A stretch of 33,276 nucleotides of DNA, from NCBI RefSeq assembly GCF_027587175.1, contig NZ_JAPCID010000073.1, positions 1-33,276 of the forward strand. Direction: 5' to 3'. The first letter of the stretch is position 1, and every line of letters starts with the position of its first letter. The DNA is from Solirubrobacter deserti. GTDB lineage: Bacteria > Actinomycetota > Thermoleophilia > Solirubrobacterales > Solirubrobacteraceae. The position numbers and the translations under genes were made by a program. The notes under the pieces are model-generated. The model saw nothing but the letters and a program-made list of their open reading frames with translations. It made no database searches and was not told the origin of the DNA. Of this stretch, positions 6,275 through 25,514 are shown piece after piece.

Positions 6275-7527
6275 GCGCGAACTTGCCCGTCGCCTTCGAC
6301 GAGGTAGCGCGTCGAGCACAGCTCCCGCAGCCCGATCGGCCCGCGCGCGTGCAGCTTCTGGGTCGAGTTGCCGATCTCGGCGCCCATCCCGAACTCGCCG
6401 CCGTCCGTGAACCGCGTGCTGGCGTTCACGTAGATGCAGGCGCTGTCGATCCCGAGCTGGAACGCCCGCGCCGCCGAGCGATCGTTGGTGACGATCGCCT
6501 CGGAATGGCCAGAGCCGTACTCGTTGACGTGGTCGATCGCCTCCTCGACGGAGTCCACGACCTTCACCGCCAGGATCAGCGCGAGGAACTCCTCGCCCCA
6601 GTCCGACTCCACGGCCGCGTTCACGGACGGATCGACCGTGCGCACGCGCTCGTCCCCGCGCAGCTCGACGCCCTCGGCCCGCAGCGCGGCGATCGCGCCA
6701 GGCAGGAACCGGTCGGCCACGTCCGAGTGCACGAGCAGCGTCTCGGCCGAGTTGCACGTGCCGGGGCGCTGGACCTTGGCGTTGACGATGATCCGCTCGG
6801 CGGCCGCGAGATCGGCCGACGCGTCGACGTAGACGTGGCAGTTGCCGGCCGCGGCGTAGATGACCGGGACCTTCGCCACCGCGCTGATCGCCTTCTTGAG
6901 GCCCTCGCCGCCGCGCGGGATGATCAGGTCGACGATGCCCTCCAGCTGGGCGAGCTCGGTCAGCGCCTCGCGGTCGCCGCCGACGAGCCCGATCGAGCCG
7001 GCCGGGAGCTCGGACGCCGCTTCGGCCGCGATCCGCGCCAGCACCGCGTTCGAATGCGCCGCGGAGGACGAGCCGCGCAGCAGCACGGCGTTGCCCGACT
7101 TCAGCGCGAGCGCGGCCGCGTCGATCGTCACGTTCGGGCGCGCCTCGTACACGACCGCCACCACGCCGAGCGGGACTCGAACCTTGCGCACCTCGAGCCC
7201 GTTCGCCAGGCGCCCGCCGTCCACGACCTCGCCGACCGGGTCGGGTAGCGCCGCGATCGCCCGCGCGCCGGCGGCGATCGAGCGCACCCGCGCGTCGGTC
7301 AACGCCAGCCGGTCCATCAGCGCGTCGGACAGCCCGTTCTCGCGCCCGGCCTCGAGATCGCGCGCGTTGGCCTCGAGGATCTCGGGGATGCGCGCCTCGA
7401 GCGCGTCGGCGATCGCGTGCAGCGCCGCGTCCTTGGTCGCCGACGGCACGGTCGCGAGCTTCCGCGCCGCGGCCTTCGCGGCCAGGGCAAGGTCAAGAAC
7501 AGAGGTCGAGGGGAGCGTCGCGGCCAT
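6271..7527 (-). CDS. proA: gamma-glutamyl phosphate reductase (glutamate-5-semialdehyde dehydrogenase)
   Basis: This 418-residue cytoplasmic enzyme reduces gamma-glutamyl phosphate to glutamate-5-semialdehyde with NADPH, the second step of proline synthesis. The aldehyde dehydrogenase-fold catalytic cysteine is Cys258 in RPGTCNSAETLL. Further family blocks are PLGVVAVVYEARPNVT, SGNAVLLRGSS, DLIIPRGGEGL, and near the end STRFTDGGEFGMGAEIGNS and KLHARGPIGL. The length is normal. Its partner proB is not adjacent: guaD, on the opposite strand, lies between them. proA therefore needs its own promoter in the 120-bp gap shared with guaD. The ATG at 7527 gives the expected N-terminus. Confidence 0.98.
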   Translation of the reverse strand: MAATLPSTSVLDLALAAKAAARKLATVPSATKDAALHAIADALEARIPEILEANARDLEAGRENGLSDALMDRLALTDARVRSIAAGARAIAALPDPVGEVVDGGRLANGLEVRKVRVPLGVVAVVYEARPNVTIDAAALALKSGNAVLLRGSSSAAHSNAVLARIAAEAASELPAGSIGLVGGDREALTELAQLEGIVDLIIPRGGEGLKKAISAVAKVPVIYAAAGNCHVYVDASADLAAAERIIVNAKVQRPGTCNSAETLLVHSDVADRFLPGAIAALRAEGVELRGDERVRTVDPSVNAAVESDWGEEFLALILAVKVVDSVEEAIDHVNEYGSGHSEAIVTNDRSAARAFQLGIDSACIYVNASTRFTDGGEFGMGAEIGNSTQKLHARGPIGLRELCSTRYLVEGDGQVRA

Positions 7528-20505: not shown

Positions 20506-21351
20506 ATGGCACGGCTCGGGAGCAACCAGTACGGCAAGGCGGAGACGCACCTCGTCCGGGTGGTGCGGGACGGTGCGGCGCACGAGTTGCGCGATCTGCT
20601 GGTCTCGGTCGCCCTCTCGGGCGAGCTGGAAGCGGTGCACCTTGACGGTGACAACTCGGCCGTGCTCGCGACCGACACGCAGAAGAACACCGTGTACGCG
20701 TTCGCCAAAGAGCACGGGGTCGGAACGCCGGAGCAGTTCGGGGCGCTGCTGGCGCGGCACTTCCTGGGCGGCGCGATCACGCGGGCACGCGTGGAGGTGC
20801 GCGAGGTCGGCTGGACGCGGCTGAGCGACCACGCGTTCGCGCAGGGTTCGCGGGAGGAGCGGATCGCGGTCGTCGTGGCGGATGAGTCGCAGTGGTTCGC
20901 GTCGGGGCTGTCGGGCCTGGTGGTCCTCAAGACGACGGACTCCGAGTTCCACGGGTTCCCGCGTGACCGGTACACGACGCTGGCCGAGACGCGCGACCGC
21001 GTGCTCGCCACCGAGGTGAGCGCGCGCTGGCGCCACGACGGCACCGCCTCCTTCGAGGACGCGCGACGCGCGTTGCTGGAGTGCTTCGCCGCGCACCACT
21101 CCCTGTCGCTGCAGCAGACGCTGTACGCGATGGGTTCGGCGGTGCTGGAGGCGTGCCCGGCCGTGCAGGAGATCCGGCTCTCGATGCCCAACAAGCACCA
21201 CTTCGTCGTGGACCTGACGCCGTTCGGTCTCTCGAACGAGAACGAGGTCTTCCACGCCGACGACCGGCCGTACGGACTGATCGAGGGCGCCGTCGTGCGC
21301 GACGGCGCCCCCGATGCGGGTCCCTTGTGGGACCCCTATCCGTTGGTGTGA
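20506..21351 (+). CDS. urate oxidase (uricase)
   Basis: This 281-residue cofactor-free oxidase converts urate to 5-hydroxyisourate with O2. Recognisable blocks are LGSNQYGKAETHLVRV at the N-terminus, GDNSAVLATDTQKNTVYAFAKEHG with the catalytic Thr and the Lys-containing beginning, the Phe/Arg segment TDSEFHGFPRDRYTTL, and MPNKHHFVVDL near the end, which supplies the conserved His and Asn environment. The length is close to the usual 290-300. It is divergent from aceE and ends one base before the stop of the convergent repeat protein. The next enzymes, HIU hydrolase and OHCU decarboxylase, are not in this window. Together with guaD and the allantoin operon it defines a purine degradation set, probably under the IclR-family regulator. 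Confidence 0.95.
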   Translation: MARLGSNQYGKAETHLVRVVRDGAAHELRDLLVSVALSGELEAVHLDGDNSAVLATDTQKNTVYAFAKEHGVGTPEQFGALLARHFLGGAITRARVEVREVGWTRLSDHAFAQGSREERIAVVVADESQWFASGLSGLVVLKTTDSEFHGFPRDRYTTLAETRDRVLATEVSARWRHDGTASFEDARRALLECFAAHHSLSLQQTLYAMGSAVLEACPAVQEIRLSMPNKHHFVVDLTPFGLSNENEVFHADDRPYGLIEGAVVRDGAPDAGPLWDPYPLV

Positions 21352-21352
21352 T

Positions 21353-23467
21353 TCACCAGCCGCCGGACCGGGGTTCCGGTTCGGTGAACCAGCTCCCGAC
21401 GGTGGTGGCCATCCCGTTGACCGTGTCTATCACCGGGTCGACGTACTCGTTCGGTATGGAAACCGTGACCGAGTGGGTCATCGCGACGCCCTCCTGTGCG
21501 CCGAAGGCCATGCCCTCTGTGGATTCGTACTCGGGTTTGAATCCGTTGTTCATGTTGATCGAGTGCTGCGTGGTCTGCGAGACGCCCGGGTTGACCTCGT
21601 TGGGGACCTCGACGGTCAACGTGACCCCCGAGTCCGTCCCGACCTCGCCAGACACGCTGAGCGGCCCGATGGCGCCCATGACCTTGCTCTGCGCGCTGAC
21701 CGGCGTCTCCGGCGCGTCCGCGGGGCCGGCGGAGCCGAACACCCCGTAGCCCTCGGCGATGCCCAGGGTCAGGGCGGTGTGGTCCTCGTCCCGCGCGAGC
21801 CCGCCGGTGAGACCGAGCCCGACCGTCACGGTCCCTTCCACCTCGAAGCCGTCCGTGGACGGCTGTGGCGGTTGTTCCGGCTGGGCGTAGCCCGGAACGG
21901 GCAGGCCCTCGTACTCCGCCGGGAGCTCGGGCAGGTCGCCCTCCTCCTCGTTGCGGTTGGTCTGCTGCGCGGGAGCGTGGCCCGGCGCCATCGTGTCCGG
22001 CGCCGGGTTGCGCTCCTGCGACGAGACCGGATCGGACGGGTCGTACGCGGGGCCGTACTGCTGCGTCGGCGGGTCGTACGGCGCGTCCAGCTCGGGGTCG
22101 TCGACGTGCGGCGCCTGCGAGGCCTCCGGACCCGGCAGGCCCAAATCGCCCATGGCGGTGTACGCGGGACCCTCGTAGTCGTCGCTCGTCGTCGACGGTG
22201 CCGTCGTGGTCTCCTCGGCCGGCTCGCCGACCGGGCCCGCCTGGCTCGGCGGCGCCGCGACGTCGCCCATCGGCGTCGTCACGGGGGTCGAGTCCTCGTC
22301 GGTGGTCGTCGACGGTGCCGTCGTGGTGTCCTCGGCGGATTCGCCGACCGGGCCGGCGTGGCTCGGCGGGGCCGAGTCCGCGTCGTCCGCGGCCGGGGCG
22401 GCCGCGCGGCTCTTGTCCTCGGCCGCGGGCGTAGTGGTGTCGCTCGACGGCCCAGCGACGTCACCCATCGCCGTCATCGCGGGCGGTGAGTAGTCGTTGG
22501 CCGGCACGTCGTCGGTCGACGGGTCCGAGGTGGTCTCGGTCGCGTCGGCCGTGTCGGTCTCGCTCGCGGGGGCCGCAGCCTCCTGCGAGGAGGGCGAGCT
22601 GGGGCCGACGGTGCCGTCCCAGCCGCTGTCATCGTCGCCCGAGGACGAGGAGTCCTCGGCCGACTCGCCGACCGGACCGTCATGGCTCGGCGGCGCATCG
22701 TCGCCGGAGTCGTCCGACGAGGACGCGATCGACTCGCTCGACGAGGACGTCGTCTCCTGCGAGGACGGCGAGCTCGGTCCGACCGAGCCGTCCCAGCCGC
22801 TGTCATCGCCGCCCGAGGACGAGGAGTCCTCGGCCGACTCGCCGACCGGGCCGTCGTGGCTCGGCGGCGCGTCGTCGCCGGAATCATCCGACGAGGACGC
22901 GATCGACTCGCTCGACGAGGACGTCGACTCCTGCGAGGACGGCGAGCTCGGCCCGACCGAGCCGTCCCAACCGCCGCTGCCGGAGGGATCGTCGTCGGCG
23001 GAATCCGACGACGACGAGCTCGACTCCTGCGAGGACGGCGAGCTCGGCCCCACCGAGCCGTCCCAGCCACCGCTGCCGGAGGGATCGTGGTCGGCGGAAT
23101 CCGACGACGACGAGCTCGACTCCTGCGAGGACGGCGAGCTGGGCCCCACCGAGCCGTCCCAGCCGCCGCTGCCGGAGGGATCGTCGTCGGCGGAATCCGA
23201 CGACGACGTCATCGACTCCGCCGACTCCCCGGCGGGACCGGCATGGCTGCCCGGCGCGTCCGATTCCTGTGATGAGGGCGAGCTCGAGCCGCCCCATCCG
23301 CCGCCATCGTCAGCCACCGCGCCCGCGGTGGCCGGCATGACGGTGCCGGCGGCCAGCGCCGCCGCGACCAGCACCGCCACGGGGCGGCGGCGCCAGCGTT
23401 GCAGCCGCAACTCGCGCGTGAGCTCCTCGAGCTCCGCGCGCGTCGGACCGCGTAGAAGGACCTTCAA
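21353..23467 (-). CDS. exported low-complexity Ser/Asp/Gly repeat protein of unknown function
   Basis: I do not recognise this protein of about 704 residues. A basic, helical leader (LLRGPTRAELEELTRELRL, RRRP) precedes a hydrophobic run AVLVAAALAAGTVM and a likely signal-peptidase site after AGAVA (about residue 52). Residues roughly 55-410 are acidic Ser/Asp/Gly/Pro repeats built on the module GWDGSVGPSSPSSQE. A Thr/Pro/Ala-rich part with three MGD motifs (TAMGDVAGPS, TPMGDVAAPP, TAMGDLGLPG) follows, then a Pro/Tyr/Gln-rich stretch. The C-terminal 170-190 residues look beta-rich and folded (VEGTVTVGLGLTGGL, LTVEVPNEVNPG, HSVTVSIPNEYVDPV). No cysteine and no LPXTG sortase signal is visible. 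I chose the TTG at 23467 because GGGAGG stands 5 nt before it; a GTG at 23497 would add 10 residues. It lies 64 bp after ligA. Confidence 0.75.
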   Translation of the reverse strand: MKVLLRGPTRAELEELTRELRLQRWRRRPVAVLVAAALAAGTVMPATAGAVADDGGGWGGSSSPSSQESDAPGSHAGPAGESAESMTSSSDSADDDPSGSGGWDGSVGPSSPSSQESSSSSSDSADHDPSGSGGWDGSVGPSSPSSQESSSSSSDSADDDPSGSGGWDGSVGPSSPSSQESTSSSSESIASSSDDSGDDAPPSHDGPVGESAEDSSSSGGDDSGWDGSVGPSSPSSQETTSSSSESIASSSDDSGDDAPPSHDGPVGESAEDSSSSGDDDSGWDGTVGPSSPSSQEAAAPASETDTADATETTSDPSTDDVPANDYSPPAMTAMGDVAGPSSDTTTPAAEDKSRAAAPAADDADSAPPSHAGPVGESAEDTTTAPSTTTDEDSTPVTTPMGDVAAPPSQAGPVGEPAEETTTAPSTTSDDYEGPAYTAMGDLGLPGPEASQAPHVDDPELDAPYDPPTQQYGPAYDPSDPVSSQERNPAPDTMAPGHAPAQQTNRNEEEGDLPELPAEYEGLPVPGYAQPEQPPQPSTDGFEVEGTVTVGLGLTGGLARDEDHTALTLGIAEGYGVFGSAGPADAPETPVSAQSKVMGAIGPLSVSGEVGTDSGVTLTVEVPNEVNPGVSQTTQHSINMNNGFKPEYESTEGMAFGAQEGVAMTHSVTVSIPNEYVDPVIDTVNGMATTVGSWFTEPEPRSGGW
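22613..22960. repeat. two 174-bp in-frame tandem repeats
   Basis: Two units (22613-22786 and 22787-22960) each encode 58 residues containing GWDGSVGPSSPSSQE, SSSSESIASSSDDSGDD and PPSHDGPVGESAEDSSSSG. The units are nearly identical in DNA, which points to recent duplication. They lie within the exported repeat protein gene. Confidence 0.85.
22961..23248. repeat. three 96-bp in-frame tandem repeats
   Basis: Units begin at 22961, 23057 and 23153, exactly 96 bp apart. Each encodes 32 residues containing GWDGSVGPSSPSSQE, a Ser run, DSADDDPSGSG. They share the GWDGSVGPSSPSSQE module with the adjoining 174-bp units but lack the SHDGPVGESAED part, so the array mixes a short and a long unit. Confidence 0.85.
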
Positions 23468-23531
23468 TCCAACCTCCCATCTATCGGGCCGCTGCACCCC
23501 TGCACGCGGCCTCGAAGACGTAGGTACCCAG

Positions 23532-25514
23532 TTAGGCGATGCCCGCGCTGATTAGTTGCTGCCAGATTTCGGACTGGTCCACGACGGCGACCTCGAGCTT
23601 CTCCGCCTTCGCAATCTTCGACGCACCCACATCGGCGCCCGTGATGAGCATGTCGGTGCTCGCGCTCACCGATGAGGCGGCGGTCGCGCCGGCGCGCTCA
23701 CACAGCCGCTGGAACGCCGGCCGCGGCACCTTCTCGCCGCTGCGCGGGTCGCTGATCGCGCCCGTGATCACGACGGTCTTGCCCTCCAGCGGCGCGCCCG
23801 CCGCCACCTCGGGCGGGAGGTCCTCTTCACGCACGTCGAGCGAGACGCCGCGCTCGCGCAGCTTCTCCAGCTCGGGCCGCACGCGTTCCAGGTGCCGGGT
23901 GAGCGACTCGGCGACCTTCGGGCCGATGTCCTCGACCGCGACGAGCTTCTCCTCGCCGGCGTCCGCGACCTCCTCCAGCGACCTGAAGCCCGCTCGACAC
24001 AGCCGCGCGGCCGTGCCCTCGGACGCCATCGGGATCGCGAGCCCGATCACGGCCCGCCGCAGCCCCACGTTCTTCGACGCCTCGATCGACTCGATCATGC
24101 GCTCGGCGCTCACCTCGCCGATGCGGTCGAACTCCAGCAGCCGCTCCTTCGTGAGCGCGTAGAAGTCGGACGGCTCGACCAGGTCGCCGGACGCGGCGAG
24201 CCGCTCGATCCAGACGGGTCCGACCGCCTCGATGTCGGCCGCGGCCCGCGATGCCCAGTGGATCAGCCGCCGGACGGTCTGGGCCGGGCACGACAGGTTC
24301 GTGCAGAACAGCTCGCGCGACTCGCCCCGCTCGGTCAGCGGCTCCCCGCACGAGGGGCACTCCGAGGGCGGGATGATGTCCCGCTCCTCCCCCGTACGCT
24401 TGGACTCGTCCAGCACGCCCGCGACGAACGGGATCACGTCGCCGGCGCGCCGCACCAGCACGGTGTCGCCGATCTTGATCCCGCGCGCCCGGATGACCTC
24501 CTGGTTGGCGAGCGTCGCGCGCGTCACGGTCGTGCCGCCGACGAACACGGGCTCCAGCCATGCGACCGGCGCGATCTTCCCGGTCTTGCCGACGTCCCAC
24601 ACGACGTCGCTGAGCACCGTCGTCTTCTCCTCGGCCGCGAACTTGTAGGCGAGCGCGCCGCGCGGCGACGAGGACCGCGTGCCCGCGGCGGCGAACGCGG
24701 ACCGGTCGGCCAGCCGCAGCACGGCGCCGTCGAGGTCGTAGTCGAGCTCCGCGCGCTCGGCCTCGATGGCCGAGATCACCTGCTGGGCCTCCTCGGCGGT
24801 CGAGCAGTGGCGCATGTCGGCCGCGTCGAAGCCCAAGGTCTTCAGGCCGGCCTCCAAGTCCGCCTCCGCACCTTCGGAGGCGTCGAGGTCGAAGGCGAAG
24901 AAGTGCAGCCGCCGTTCGGCCACCGCGGCCGGGTCCTTGGCCCGCACGGTGCCCGCGGCGGCGTTGCGCGGGTTGATCAGCGGCTTGTCGGGATGCGCCT
25001 CGTTGTAGGCCGCGAACGTGGACCGCAGCATCACGGCCTCCCCGCGCACCTCCACGCGCCCGCCCAGCTCGACCGAGGACGGCACCCCATCCGCCAGCGC
25101 GCGCACGATCACGGTCACGTCGTCGCCCGTCGTCCCGTCCCCGCGCGTGACGGCCCGCGCCAGGCGCCCGTCCTCGTACACCAGCGCCAGCGACAGCCCG
25201 TCGAGCTTGGGCATGACGACCACCGACTGCCCCGGGAAGCGCTCGAAGAACGCCTCGACCTGCTCTGGCTTGGTCGCCTTCTCCAGCGACAGCATCGGGC
25301 GCGAGTGCCGGACCGGCGCGTGCAGCACCGACGGCGCGCCCACGGCCTCCAGCGGATTCGGCGAGGGCGTGTGCTCGGGGTGCGCGGCGAGCAGCTCGCG
25401 CAGCTCGTCCTCCAGCGCGTCGTACTCCGCGTCCGCCACCTGCGGCGCGCCGTCGTAGTACGCGGCCCGCAGCTCCGTGATCCGCCGGGCCAGCTCCTCG
25501 ATCCGTTCCTTCAC
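23532..25514 (-). CDS. ligA: NAD+-dependent DNA ligase LigA, divergent form
   Basis: This 660-residue ligase seals nicks using NAD+. Domain Ia is visible (YYDGAPQVADAEYDALEDEL). The adenylation motif is MPKLDGLSLALVYEDG with nucleophile Lys103, and further motifs are GRVEVRGEAVM and INPRNAAAGTVR. The OB fold, a four-Cys zinc site (CPSCGEPL...FCTNLSCPAQ), helix-hairpin-helix repeats and a C-terminal BRCT domain (GKTVVITGAISDPRSGEK) follow. The length is near the usual 670. Several normally strict positions differ: VGKTG for VGRTG, ATLAN for ATLHN, and IPMASEGTAARLC where LigA has an IRHVGE-like hairpin. It may be the housekeeping ligase or a second paralogue. The start is the GTG at 25514. It lies downstream of the sugar dehydrogenase, behind a terminator. 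Confidence 0.92.
   Translation of the reverse strand: MKERIEELARRITELRAAYYDGAPQVADAEYDALEDELRELLAAHPEHTPSPNPLEAVGAPSVLHAPVRHSRPMLSLEKATKPEQVEAFFERFPGQSVVVMPKLDGLSLALVYEDGRLARAVTRGDGTTGDDVTVIVRALADGVPSSVELGGRVEVRGEAVMLRSTFAAYNEAHPDKPLINPRNAAAGTVRAKDPAAVAERRLHFFAFDLDASEGAEADLEAGLKTLGFDAADMRHCSTAEEAQQVISAIEAERAELDYDLDGAVLRLADRSAFAAAGTRSSSPRGALAYKFAAEEKTTVLSDVVWDVGKTGKIAPVAWLEPVFVGGTTVTRATLANQEVIRARGIKIGDTVLVRRAGDVIPFVAGVLDESKRTGEERDIIPPSECPSCGEPLTERGESRELFCTNLSCPAQTVRRLIHWASRAAADIEAVGPVWIERLAASGDLVEPSDFYALTKERLLEFDRIGEVSAERMIESIEASKNVGLRRAVIGLAIPMASEGTAARLCRAGFRSLEEVADAGEEKLVAVEDIGPKVAESLTRHLERVRPELEKLRERGVSLDVREEDLPPEVAAGAPLEGKTVVITGAISDPRSGEKVPRPAFQRLCERAGATAASSVSASTDMLITGADVGASKIAKAEKLEVAVVDQSEIWQQLISAGIA

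What the first reader, a model, noticed from the sequence alone, without database searches (positions are those of the whole stretch)
21353..23467. Exported Ser/Asp/Gly repeat protein with two interleaved repeat lengths
Near-identical 174-bp and 96-bp units share a GWDGSVGPSSPSSQE module, so the array grew by two different duplications. Three MGD-containing motifs follow, then a folded-looking C-terminal domain with the paired segments TVEVPNEV and TVSIPNEY. No anchor signal or cysteine is seen. It may be a stalk or matrix protein presenting the C-terminal domain away from the cell. I know of no such described family.
Basis: partly seen in the sequence, partly recalled or inferred. Interest (0 to 1): 0.55.

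Follow-up and report, generated by a model that had tools for sequence, protein, structure and literature searches.

The report
Secreted acidic repeat protein of Solirubrobacter
A soil bacterium encodes an exported, highly negatively charged repeat protein with a fast-evolving sheet-rich end domain that matches no family we searched; a strongly conserved hairpin-like element sits just before the gene's start, and the protein was found only in this genus and, more distantly, in one related genus.

Summary
The minus-strand gene 23467..21353 encodes a 704-residue exported-looking protein with GWDG modules at residues 102, 134, 166, 224 and 282 (32- and 58-residue units), three MGD motifs, no cysteine and a 168-residue C-terminal domain. 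The organism is Solirubrobacter (one base different over 16.5 kb from strain CPCC 204708). The gene is real: present in 6 of 7 genus genomes (5 of 6 species), between ligA and uricase, frame intact. The domain matches no Pfam, NCBIfam, PHROG or PDB sequence family. Outside the genus, profiles found convincing relatives only in two genomes of one sister genus (three copies), where the domain precedes the repeats. Its strands are two-faced (one face bulky hydrophobic, the other about 70% Gly/Ala/Ser/Thr). A sister-genus homologue is modelled as seven strands plus a helix (pLDDT 72), nearest to beta-barrels, with middling scores. The domain evolves faster (dN/dS 0.48-1.06) than its neighbours (0.12-0.27). 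New here: a nearly invariant hairpin-like leader before the ribosome-binding site, 68-90 bits in all 6 carriers against at most 25.5 bits elsewhere in 146 family genomes. Best reading: a secreted, envelope-associated polyanionic brush whose beta domain is the working or attachment unit. Function is unproven.

The parts
21353..23467 (-). CDS, 704 aa plus stop; exported-looking Ser/Asp/Gly/Pro-rich repeat protein
   Evidence: open orthologous frames in 6 of 7 genus genomes
23487..23511 (-). leader hairpin GGCCGC-G-TGCA-GGGG-TGCA-GCGGCC (RNA sense), conserved in 5 species with a variant outer stem in G005
23473..23478 (-). GGGAGG, ribosome-binding-site-like, invariant in 5 of 5 species
23312..23467 (-). 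N-terminal 52 residues: basic n-region, hydrophobic core, A-x-A-like end; export signal (sequence reading only, no signal predictor run)
22913..23219 (-). 96-bp (32-aa) tandem units sharing GWDGSVGPSSPSSQE
22580..22974 (-). 174-bp (58-aa) tandem units sharing the same GWDG module
22145..22468 (-). span holding the three MGD motifs (residues 334, 400, 439)
21356..21859 (-). C-terminal beta domain (168 aa), ending in Gly-Gly-Trp

Best explanation
A secreted, cell-envelope-associated, intrinsically disordered polyanionic protein. Shown: an exported-looking N-terminus (by sequence reading); a 491-residue region after residue 45 that is 22% Ser, 13% Asp and 0% Lys, with a computed net charge near -92, built in part from duplicated modules; and a separate, fast-evolving domain of about 165 residues with strongly two-faced strands. 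Inferred: the extended acidic region forms a hydrated, possibly glycosylated or cation-binding brush or matrix around the cell. The Gly/Ala/Ser/Thr-faced beta domain is the attachment or assembly module that holds it to the envelope or to its own kind, which would explain why the domain can sit at either end of the brush. Expression is set by a gene-specific leader element just upstream of the ribosome-binding site, acting as an RNA hairpin or as a DNA palindrome; which of the two is not settled.
For: Orthologues between ligA and uricase in G001, G003 and G004, and between the same two genes with extra genes inserted in G005; 6 of 7 genus genomes carry it. Composition and charge: repeat-region charges -59 to -92, domain pI 4.05-4.82 across 5 species. 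GWDG module under constraint: within-gene codon differences 78 synonymous to 27 non-synonymous over 375 codon comparisons, between species 291 to 171 over 1425; pairs are not independent. Domain is a separate unit: profile A1 finds a sister-genus copy (E 1.9e-5); hhalign of Solirubrobacter rows against sister-genus rows 93% probability, E 2.9e-7; domain before the repeats there. Two-faced strands: alternation 2.11 against a shuffled mean of 0.91, 0 of 200 shuffles. Model of a sister-genus homologue, pLDDT 71.8, seven strands and a helix, with beta-barrels dominating structure matches. Leader: 68-90 bits at this gene in 6 of 6 carriers, next best listed match 25.5 bits, 146 genomes searched.
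Against: No anchor, binding partner, glycosylation or localisation is shown. The window's own domain modelled badly (pLDDT 42.6); the better model is of a homologue 19% identical to it. The sister-genus link is one-sided: the profile of the three sister-genus copies (A4) found no Solirubrobacter domain at E <= 0.01 in any of the 7 genus genomes. Structure matches are middling (best VIA Z 8.2; no Foldseek match with E <= 0.001). One of 7 genus genomes (G002) lacks the gene, so it is not essential to the genus. Leader covariation is one pair only and does not beat shuffles (207 of 500); of five longer leaders the consensus hairpin, give or take a base, is in the minimum-energy fold of three, shifted in G001 and absent in G005. 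Weak leader-model matches at E <= 1 occur in 104 of 146 genomes, carriers included; I take those at or below 25.5 bits as chance and did not read them.
Confidence: 0.42

Rival explanations
1. Stalk model: the N-terminal segment stays in the membrane as an uncleaved signal anchor and the Ser/Asp stalk holds the C-terminal domain out as an adhesin.
For: Long basic n-region and hydrophobic segment; domain is C-terminal in all 5 Solirubrobacter species read; fast domain evolution fits a surface-exposed binding module.
Against: The hydrophobic segment is followed by A-x-A-like or LA ends and then EPGGWDGG in 4 of 5 species, as for a cleaved signal. In the sister genus the domain precedes the repeats.
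Confidence: 0.2
2. Freely secreted matrix or cation-binding protein: the Asp/Ser-rich region binds calcium or holds water in the extracellular polymer layer, and the domain only folds the chain end.
For: Extreme acidity, no Lys in the repeat region, Ser/Asp runs; no anchor signal seen; the nearest named strain comes from desert sand (PMC10722151, abstract start and passages).
Against: No direct evidence of metal binding; the GWDG and MGD motifs are conserved beyond what charge alone would need.
Confidence: 0.2
3. The domain is a membrane-active or pore-like beta-barrel (or a lipid-contacting 'bald' barrel that works like the R. equi Vap proteins) and the repeat is its solubilising tail.
For: One face 49-57% bulky hydrophobic, the other 67-79% Gly/Ala/Ser/Thr; Foldseek and VIA lists rich in membrane barrels; VapD, VapG, VapB at VIA Z 6.2-6.7 covering 95-100 of 109-113 residues, VapD with Foldseek probability 0.85 though E 0.13; the VapD paper reports a glycine-rich bald surface binding detergent and a disordered N-terminus (PMC4118825, abstract and passages).
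Against: Middling scores only; the Vap strand order (PMC4118825) could not be tested; the nearest named strain stains Gram-positive (PMC10722151, abstract start) and so is not expected to have an outer membrane; window domain modelled poorly.
Confidence: 0.15
4. Largely neutral low-complexity filler, kept by chance.
For: Absent from G002; domain dN/dS up to 1.06.
Against: Kept in frame in 6 of 7 genomes; conserved module, conserved terminal Gly-aromatic and conserved leader.
Confidence: 0.03

Closest known systems
Sdr/Clf serine-aspartate repeat surface proteins of staphylococci (recalled)
   Same: Ser/Asp-rich disordered stretch joined to a beta domain on an exported protein
   Different: No LPXTG or C-terminal membrane segment; mixed GWDG/MGD/SHAGPVGE modules rather than plain SD dipeptides; domain not recognised by Pfam
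Rhodococcus equi Vap proteins (PMC4118825: abstract and passages seen; PMC10903876: abstract and section list seen)
   Same: Exported actinobacterial protein with disordered N-terminal part and a Gly-rich beta domain; Gly-rich then aromatic C-terminus; VIA Z 6.2-6.7 to a homologue model
   Different: No Vap match in Pfam; much longer acidic repeat region; extra C-terminal helix in the model; Gly-aromatic end not in a predicted strand; Vap strand order not testable here
Outer-membrane beta-barrels (OpcA, intimin beta domain, KdgM)
   Same: Long amphipathic strands; among the top structural neighbours of the homologue model
   Different: Nearest named strain is Gram-stain positive (PMC10722151, abstract start); the terminal aromatic does not end a predicted strand; no Foldseek match with E <= 0.001

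Membership tests
Sdr/Clf-type sortase-anchored repeat proteins | C-terminal LPXTG, hydrophobic segment and basic tail | tested here: not met
   C-terminus reads EPEPRSGGW, no LPXTG-like motif or membrane segment; the genome does hold one sortase match
Sdr/Clf-type sortase-anchored repeat proteins | Long Ser-Asp dipeptide repeat | tested here: not met
   Repeat is a 32/58-aa mosaic; region is 22% Ser and 13% Asp
R. equi Vap family | Sequence membership (a Vap model in Pfam; its presence in the library is recalled, not checked) | tested here: not met
   0 Pfam families up to E 1 for the whole protein; for 8 domain copies only one chance-level hit, Pax2_C E 0.2
R. equi Vap family | Eight-stranded closed barrel with strand order 1-2-3-8-5-6-7-4 | tested here: inconclusive
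   Homologue model has 7 strands and VIA Z 6.2-6.7 to VapB/D/G, but coordinates and strand order were not available
Outer-membrane beta-barrel | Closed transmembrane barrel fold | tested here: inconclusive
   VIA Z up to 8.2 (OpcA), no Foldseek E <= 0.001
Outer-membrane beta-barrel | Host has an outer membrane | not tested
   Only the published Gram-stain-positive description was seen (PMC10722151); BamA was not searched for
Known RNA leader family (Rfam) | Score above a family's gathering cut-off | tested here: not met
   Only a tRNA in the whole window; no match up to E 5 at 23400-23620

The most novel reading that the evidence does not exclude
A lineage-specific family of secreted polyanionic brush proteins built on an undescribed 'bald' beta-barrel-like domain in bacteria with no known outer membrane. 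In Solirubrobacter it is controlled by a new single-target leader element (a hairpin with an invariant GGGG loop and a conserved one-base bulge next to the ribosome-binding site) that appears more conserved than the protein it precedes.
Probability: 0.3. Interest if true: 0.6.

Novelty: new variant of a known kind. Interest (0 to 1): 0.43.

Why it matters
Surface biology of Thermoleophilia is, to my knowledge, little described. Searches of the paper library for Solirubrobacter with 'serine-rich' (0 papers) and with 'surface protein' (5 papers, none about this protein as far as titles and abstract starts show) found no account of it; only open-licence papers are held. The family gives a concrete handle: one gene, one dedicated leader, one separate domain. 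It also shows an unusual pattern in which some disordered modules and the leader are better conserved than the structured domain.

Tried and rejected
Known families: Pfam, NCBIfam, PHROGs and PDB sequences gave nothing; one search listed one chance-level hit (E 0.2) and four (best E 0.3). Plasmids and phages: no tblastn match to the domain. Mobile origin: rejected, conserved locus in the genus. Wider spread: profile A1 matched 5 of 399 class genomes (four Solirubrobacter and G023); A2, which already held a G023 row, matched 8 of 146 family genomes (six Solirubrobacter, G023 with two copies, G211); A3 matched 3 of 396 phylum genomes (the window's own plus two partial matches at E 0.001 and 0.007, treated as chance and not read); A4 matched 3 of 146 (the two sister-genus genomes plus one match at E 0.003 with a stop inside, treated as chance and not read) and none of the 7 Solirubrobacter genomes. 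Class and phylum were sampled, not exhausted. The genome-contig scan gave 2 loci. The repeat-piece query matched only 5 of 146 family genomes, all Solirubrobacter. N-terminus query on the own genome: apart from this gene only weak matches (best E 0.05), not followed. Known RNA families: none. Sigma-70 promoter scan of 21100-23800: 0 found; one terminator-like site on the plus strand at 21532, shuffles mean 0.4, not used. A GGGTAC box upstream of the leader in 3 of 5 species was considered as a stress-sigma -10 box (consensus recalled); no matching -35 was seen by eye and I make no claim. Covariation as proof of RNA structure: rejected as too weak. Sortase anchoring: rejected for lack of a motif, although a sortase match exists. 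O-mannosylation: five PMT-like matches, but that family rings in 8 of 14 control genomes, so it is not informative. Structure lists that lack a fold are not read as showing a new fold. Paper search for leader or riboswitch terms listed nothing on Solirubrobacter among its first 6 of 1,489. Not run: PADLOC, a signal-peptide predictor, a search for BamA.

Full report
What is there. The minus-strand frame 23467..21353 encodes 704 residues. The window lies in a Solirubrobacter genome (G000, 7.09 Mb, 129 contigs). Over 16,504 bases it differs by one base from a record of Solirubrobacter sp. CPCC 204708, the strain named S. deserti in PMC10722151 (abstract start and passages seen). Start: TTG 23467 with GGGAGG close upstream. 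The gene begins 64 bp after ligA on the same strand, and its stop lies 1 bp from the stop of a convergent uricase gene.

The repeats. GWDG modules at residues 102, 134, 166, 224 and 282 give unit lengths of 32 and 58 residues, matching the 96-bp and 174-bp arrays found by TRF. Best 96-bp window identities are 96.9% and 95.8%, against at most 61% in 20 codon-shuffled versions. The near-identical record has the same array with one amino-acid difference in the protein. Other species have other arrangements of GWDG and SSPSS(Q/R)E, and G005 keeps only one GWDG. A G003 stretch is 90% identical to a 63-residue G004 repeat piece, while the domains of those two are 45% identical over 159 positions. 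So some modules are better conserved than the domain. For the module, synonymous codon differences outnumber non-synonymous ones (78 to 27 within genes, 291 to 171 between species; comparisons not independent).

Who has it. A search with the 168-residue domain matched 5 of 61 genomes, all Solirubrobacter. With the same-species genome G061, which may be the CPCC 204708 record itself, 6 of 7 genus genomes (5 of 6 species) carry it. G002 does not, and in the 18 kb around its uricase no ligA or repeat gene was found. In G001, G003 and G004 the order ligA, repeat gene, uricase is kept, with about 1 kb of extra sequence before uricase in G004; in G005 about 5 kb with other genes lies between ligA and the repeat gene and about 1 kb before uricase. 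Profile searches added a sister genus of the same family: G023 with two copies and G211 with one. Support for that homology: the Solirubrobacter-only profile found one G023 copy at E 1.9e-5, and hhalign between the two groups gave 93% probability, E 2.9e-7. Against it: the sister-genus-only profile A4 found none of the Solirubrobacter domains at E <= 0.01. The sister-genus proteins carry the domain before the low-complexity part and end in GGGGGW, GADASF or SDAGAF; the Solirubrobacter ends are SGGW, GGGF or GGAW. None of the 8 window proteins tried matched the three sister-genus loci by tblastn at E <= 1e-5, so the locus is not shared and pairwise similarity of the repeat protein is too low for tblastn.

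The domain. Ten species pairs give dN/dS 0.48-1.06 (ratios taken from the values), against 0.12-0.23 for ligA and 0.16-0.27 for uricase; alignment error may inflate the former. AlphaFold2 on the window domain failed (pLDDT 42.6). On a sister-genus homologue with 8 sequences it gave pLDDT 71.8, pTM 0.55: seven strands, several very long, then a long helix. That homologue is 19% identical to the window's domain. Mapping those strands on all 8 sequences, one face has 49-57% bulky hydrophobic residues and the other 2-9%, the latter being 67-79% Gly/Ala/Ser/Thr; faces were named by hydropathy, but the unsigned alternation was reached by 0 of 200 shuffles. Foldseek found no PDB match with E <= 0.001 (best 6.6e-3, intimin beta domain) and none in the viral library. 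VIA gave Z 8.2 to OpcA, 8.0 to a designed transmembrane barrel and 6.2-6.7 to VapB/D/G. These are middling values and may mean only a common arrangement.

The leader. The bases before the start hold GGCCGC-N-YGCA-GGGG-TGCR-GCGGCC in four of five species, with a variant outer stem in G005. In alignment columns 19-46, 22 of 28 are invariant, against 3 of 18 upstream and 11 of 22 downstream. A 63-nt RNA fold of the window's leader is 3.6 sd more stable than shuffles. Longer leaders of the five species give z from -0.43 to -2.29; the consensus hairpin, give or take a base, is in the minimum-energy fold of three (window, G004, G003), shifted in G001 and absent in G005. Only one pair covaries, and shuffles do as well in 207 of 500. 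So conservation is clear, and RNA as opposed to DNA function is not shown. A covariance model, built from these leaders, scores 68-90 bits at this gene in all 6 carriers; the best other match listed among 146 family genomes is 25.5 bits. Weak matches at E <= 1 occur in 104 of the 146 genomes, carriers included, and the search used strict filters. The sister-genus loci have nothing above 13.9 bits. On this evidence the element is private to this gene.

How it may work. Charge, composition, lack of anchor, separate domain and changed domain order fit an envelope-associated polyanionic brush held by its beta domain better than a one-way stalk. This is inference; no localisation or binding is shown. 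The Vap proteins (PMC4118825 abstract and passages; PMC10903876 abstract) show that an actinobacterial exported protein can join a disordered N-terminal part to a glycine-rich barrel, and that in VapA the N-terminal part, without lipobox, is needed for surface localisation. The present family may work like them but fails the sequence membership test.

Verdict. Ordinary in being one more low-complexity surface-type protein; notable for the domain, for the inverted conservation and for the leader.

Noticed in passing
window 23468-23529 (-): Leader element with hairpin, GGGG loop and one-base bulge, strong matches only at this gene in 6 of 6 carrier genomes.
   Followed up: yes
L026:6766-9507 and L037 around 6295-6867: Sister-genus genome G023 has two divergent proteins with this domain; one holds SVDAPDP-type tandem repeats, the other Ser/Gly/Asp repeats ending in GGGGGW.
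   Followed up: partly
window N-terminus 23467-23312; L012, L010, L026, L038: An R-x-PT-x-x-EL motif precedes the basic stretch and hydrophobic core in both genera; G001, G003 and the second G023 copy lack it. It may be a shared export-signal feature.
   Followed up: no
L010:2108-7207: In G005 about 5 kb with a kinase-like, a regulator-like and an ABC-permease-like frame (names from reading the sequence) lies between ligA and the repeat gene.
   Followed up: no
L012:9849-10250 (-): In G004 about 1 kb with a MarR-like frame (name from reading) separates the repeat gene from uricase.
   Followed up: no
L020 (G004:C676:6888-7730): Second, 57%-identical uricase copy in G004 with one internal TGA.
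   Followed up: no
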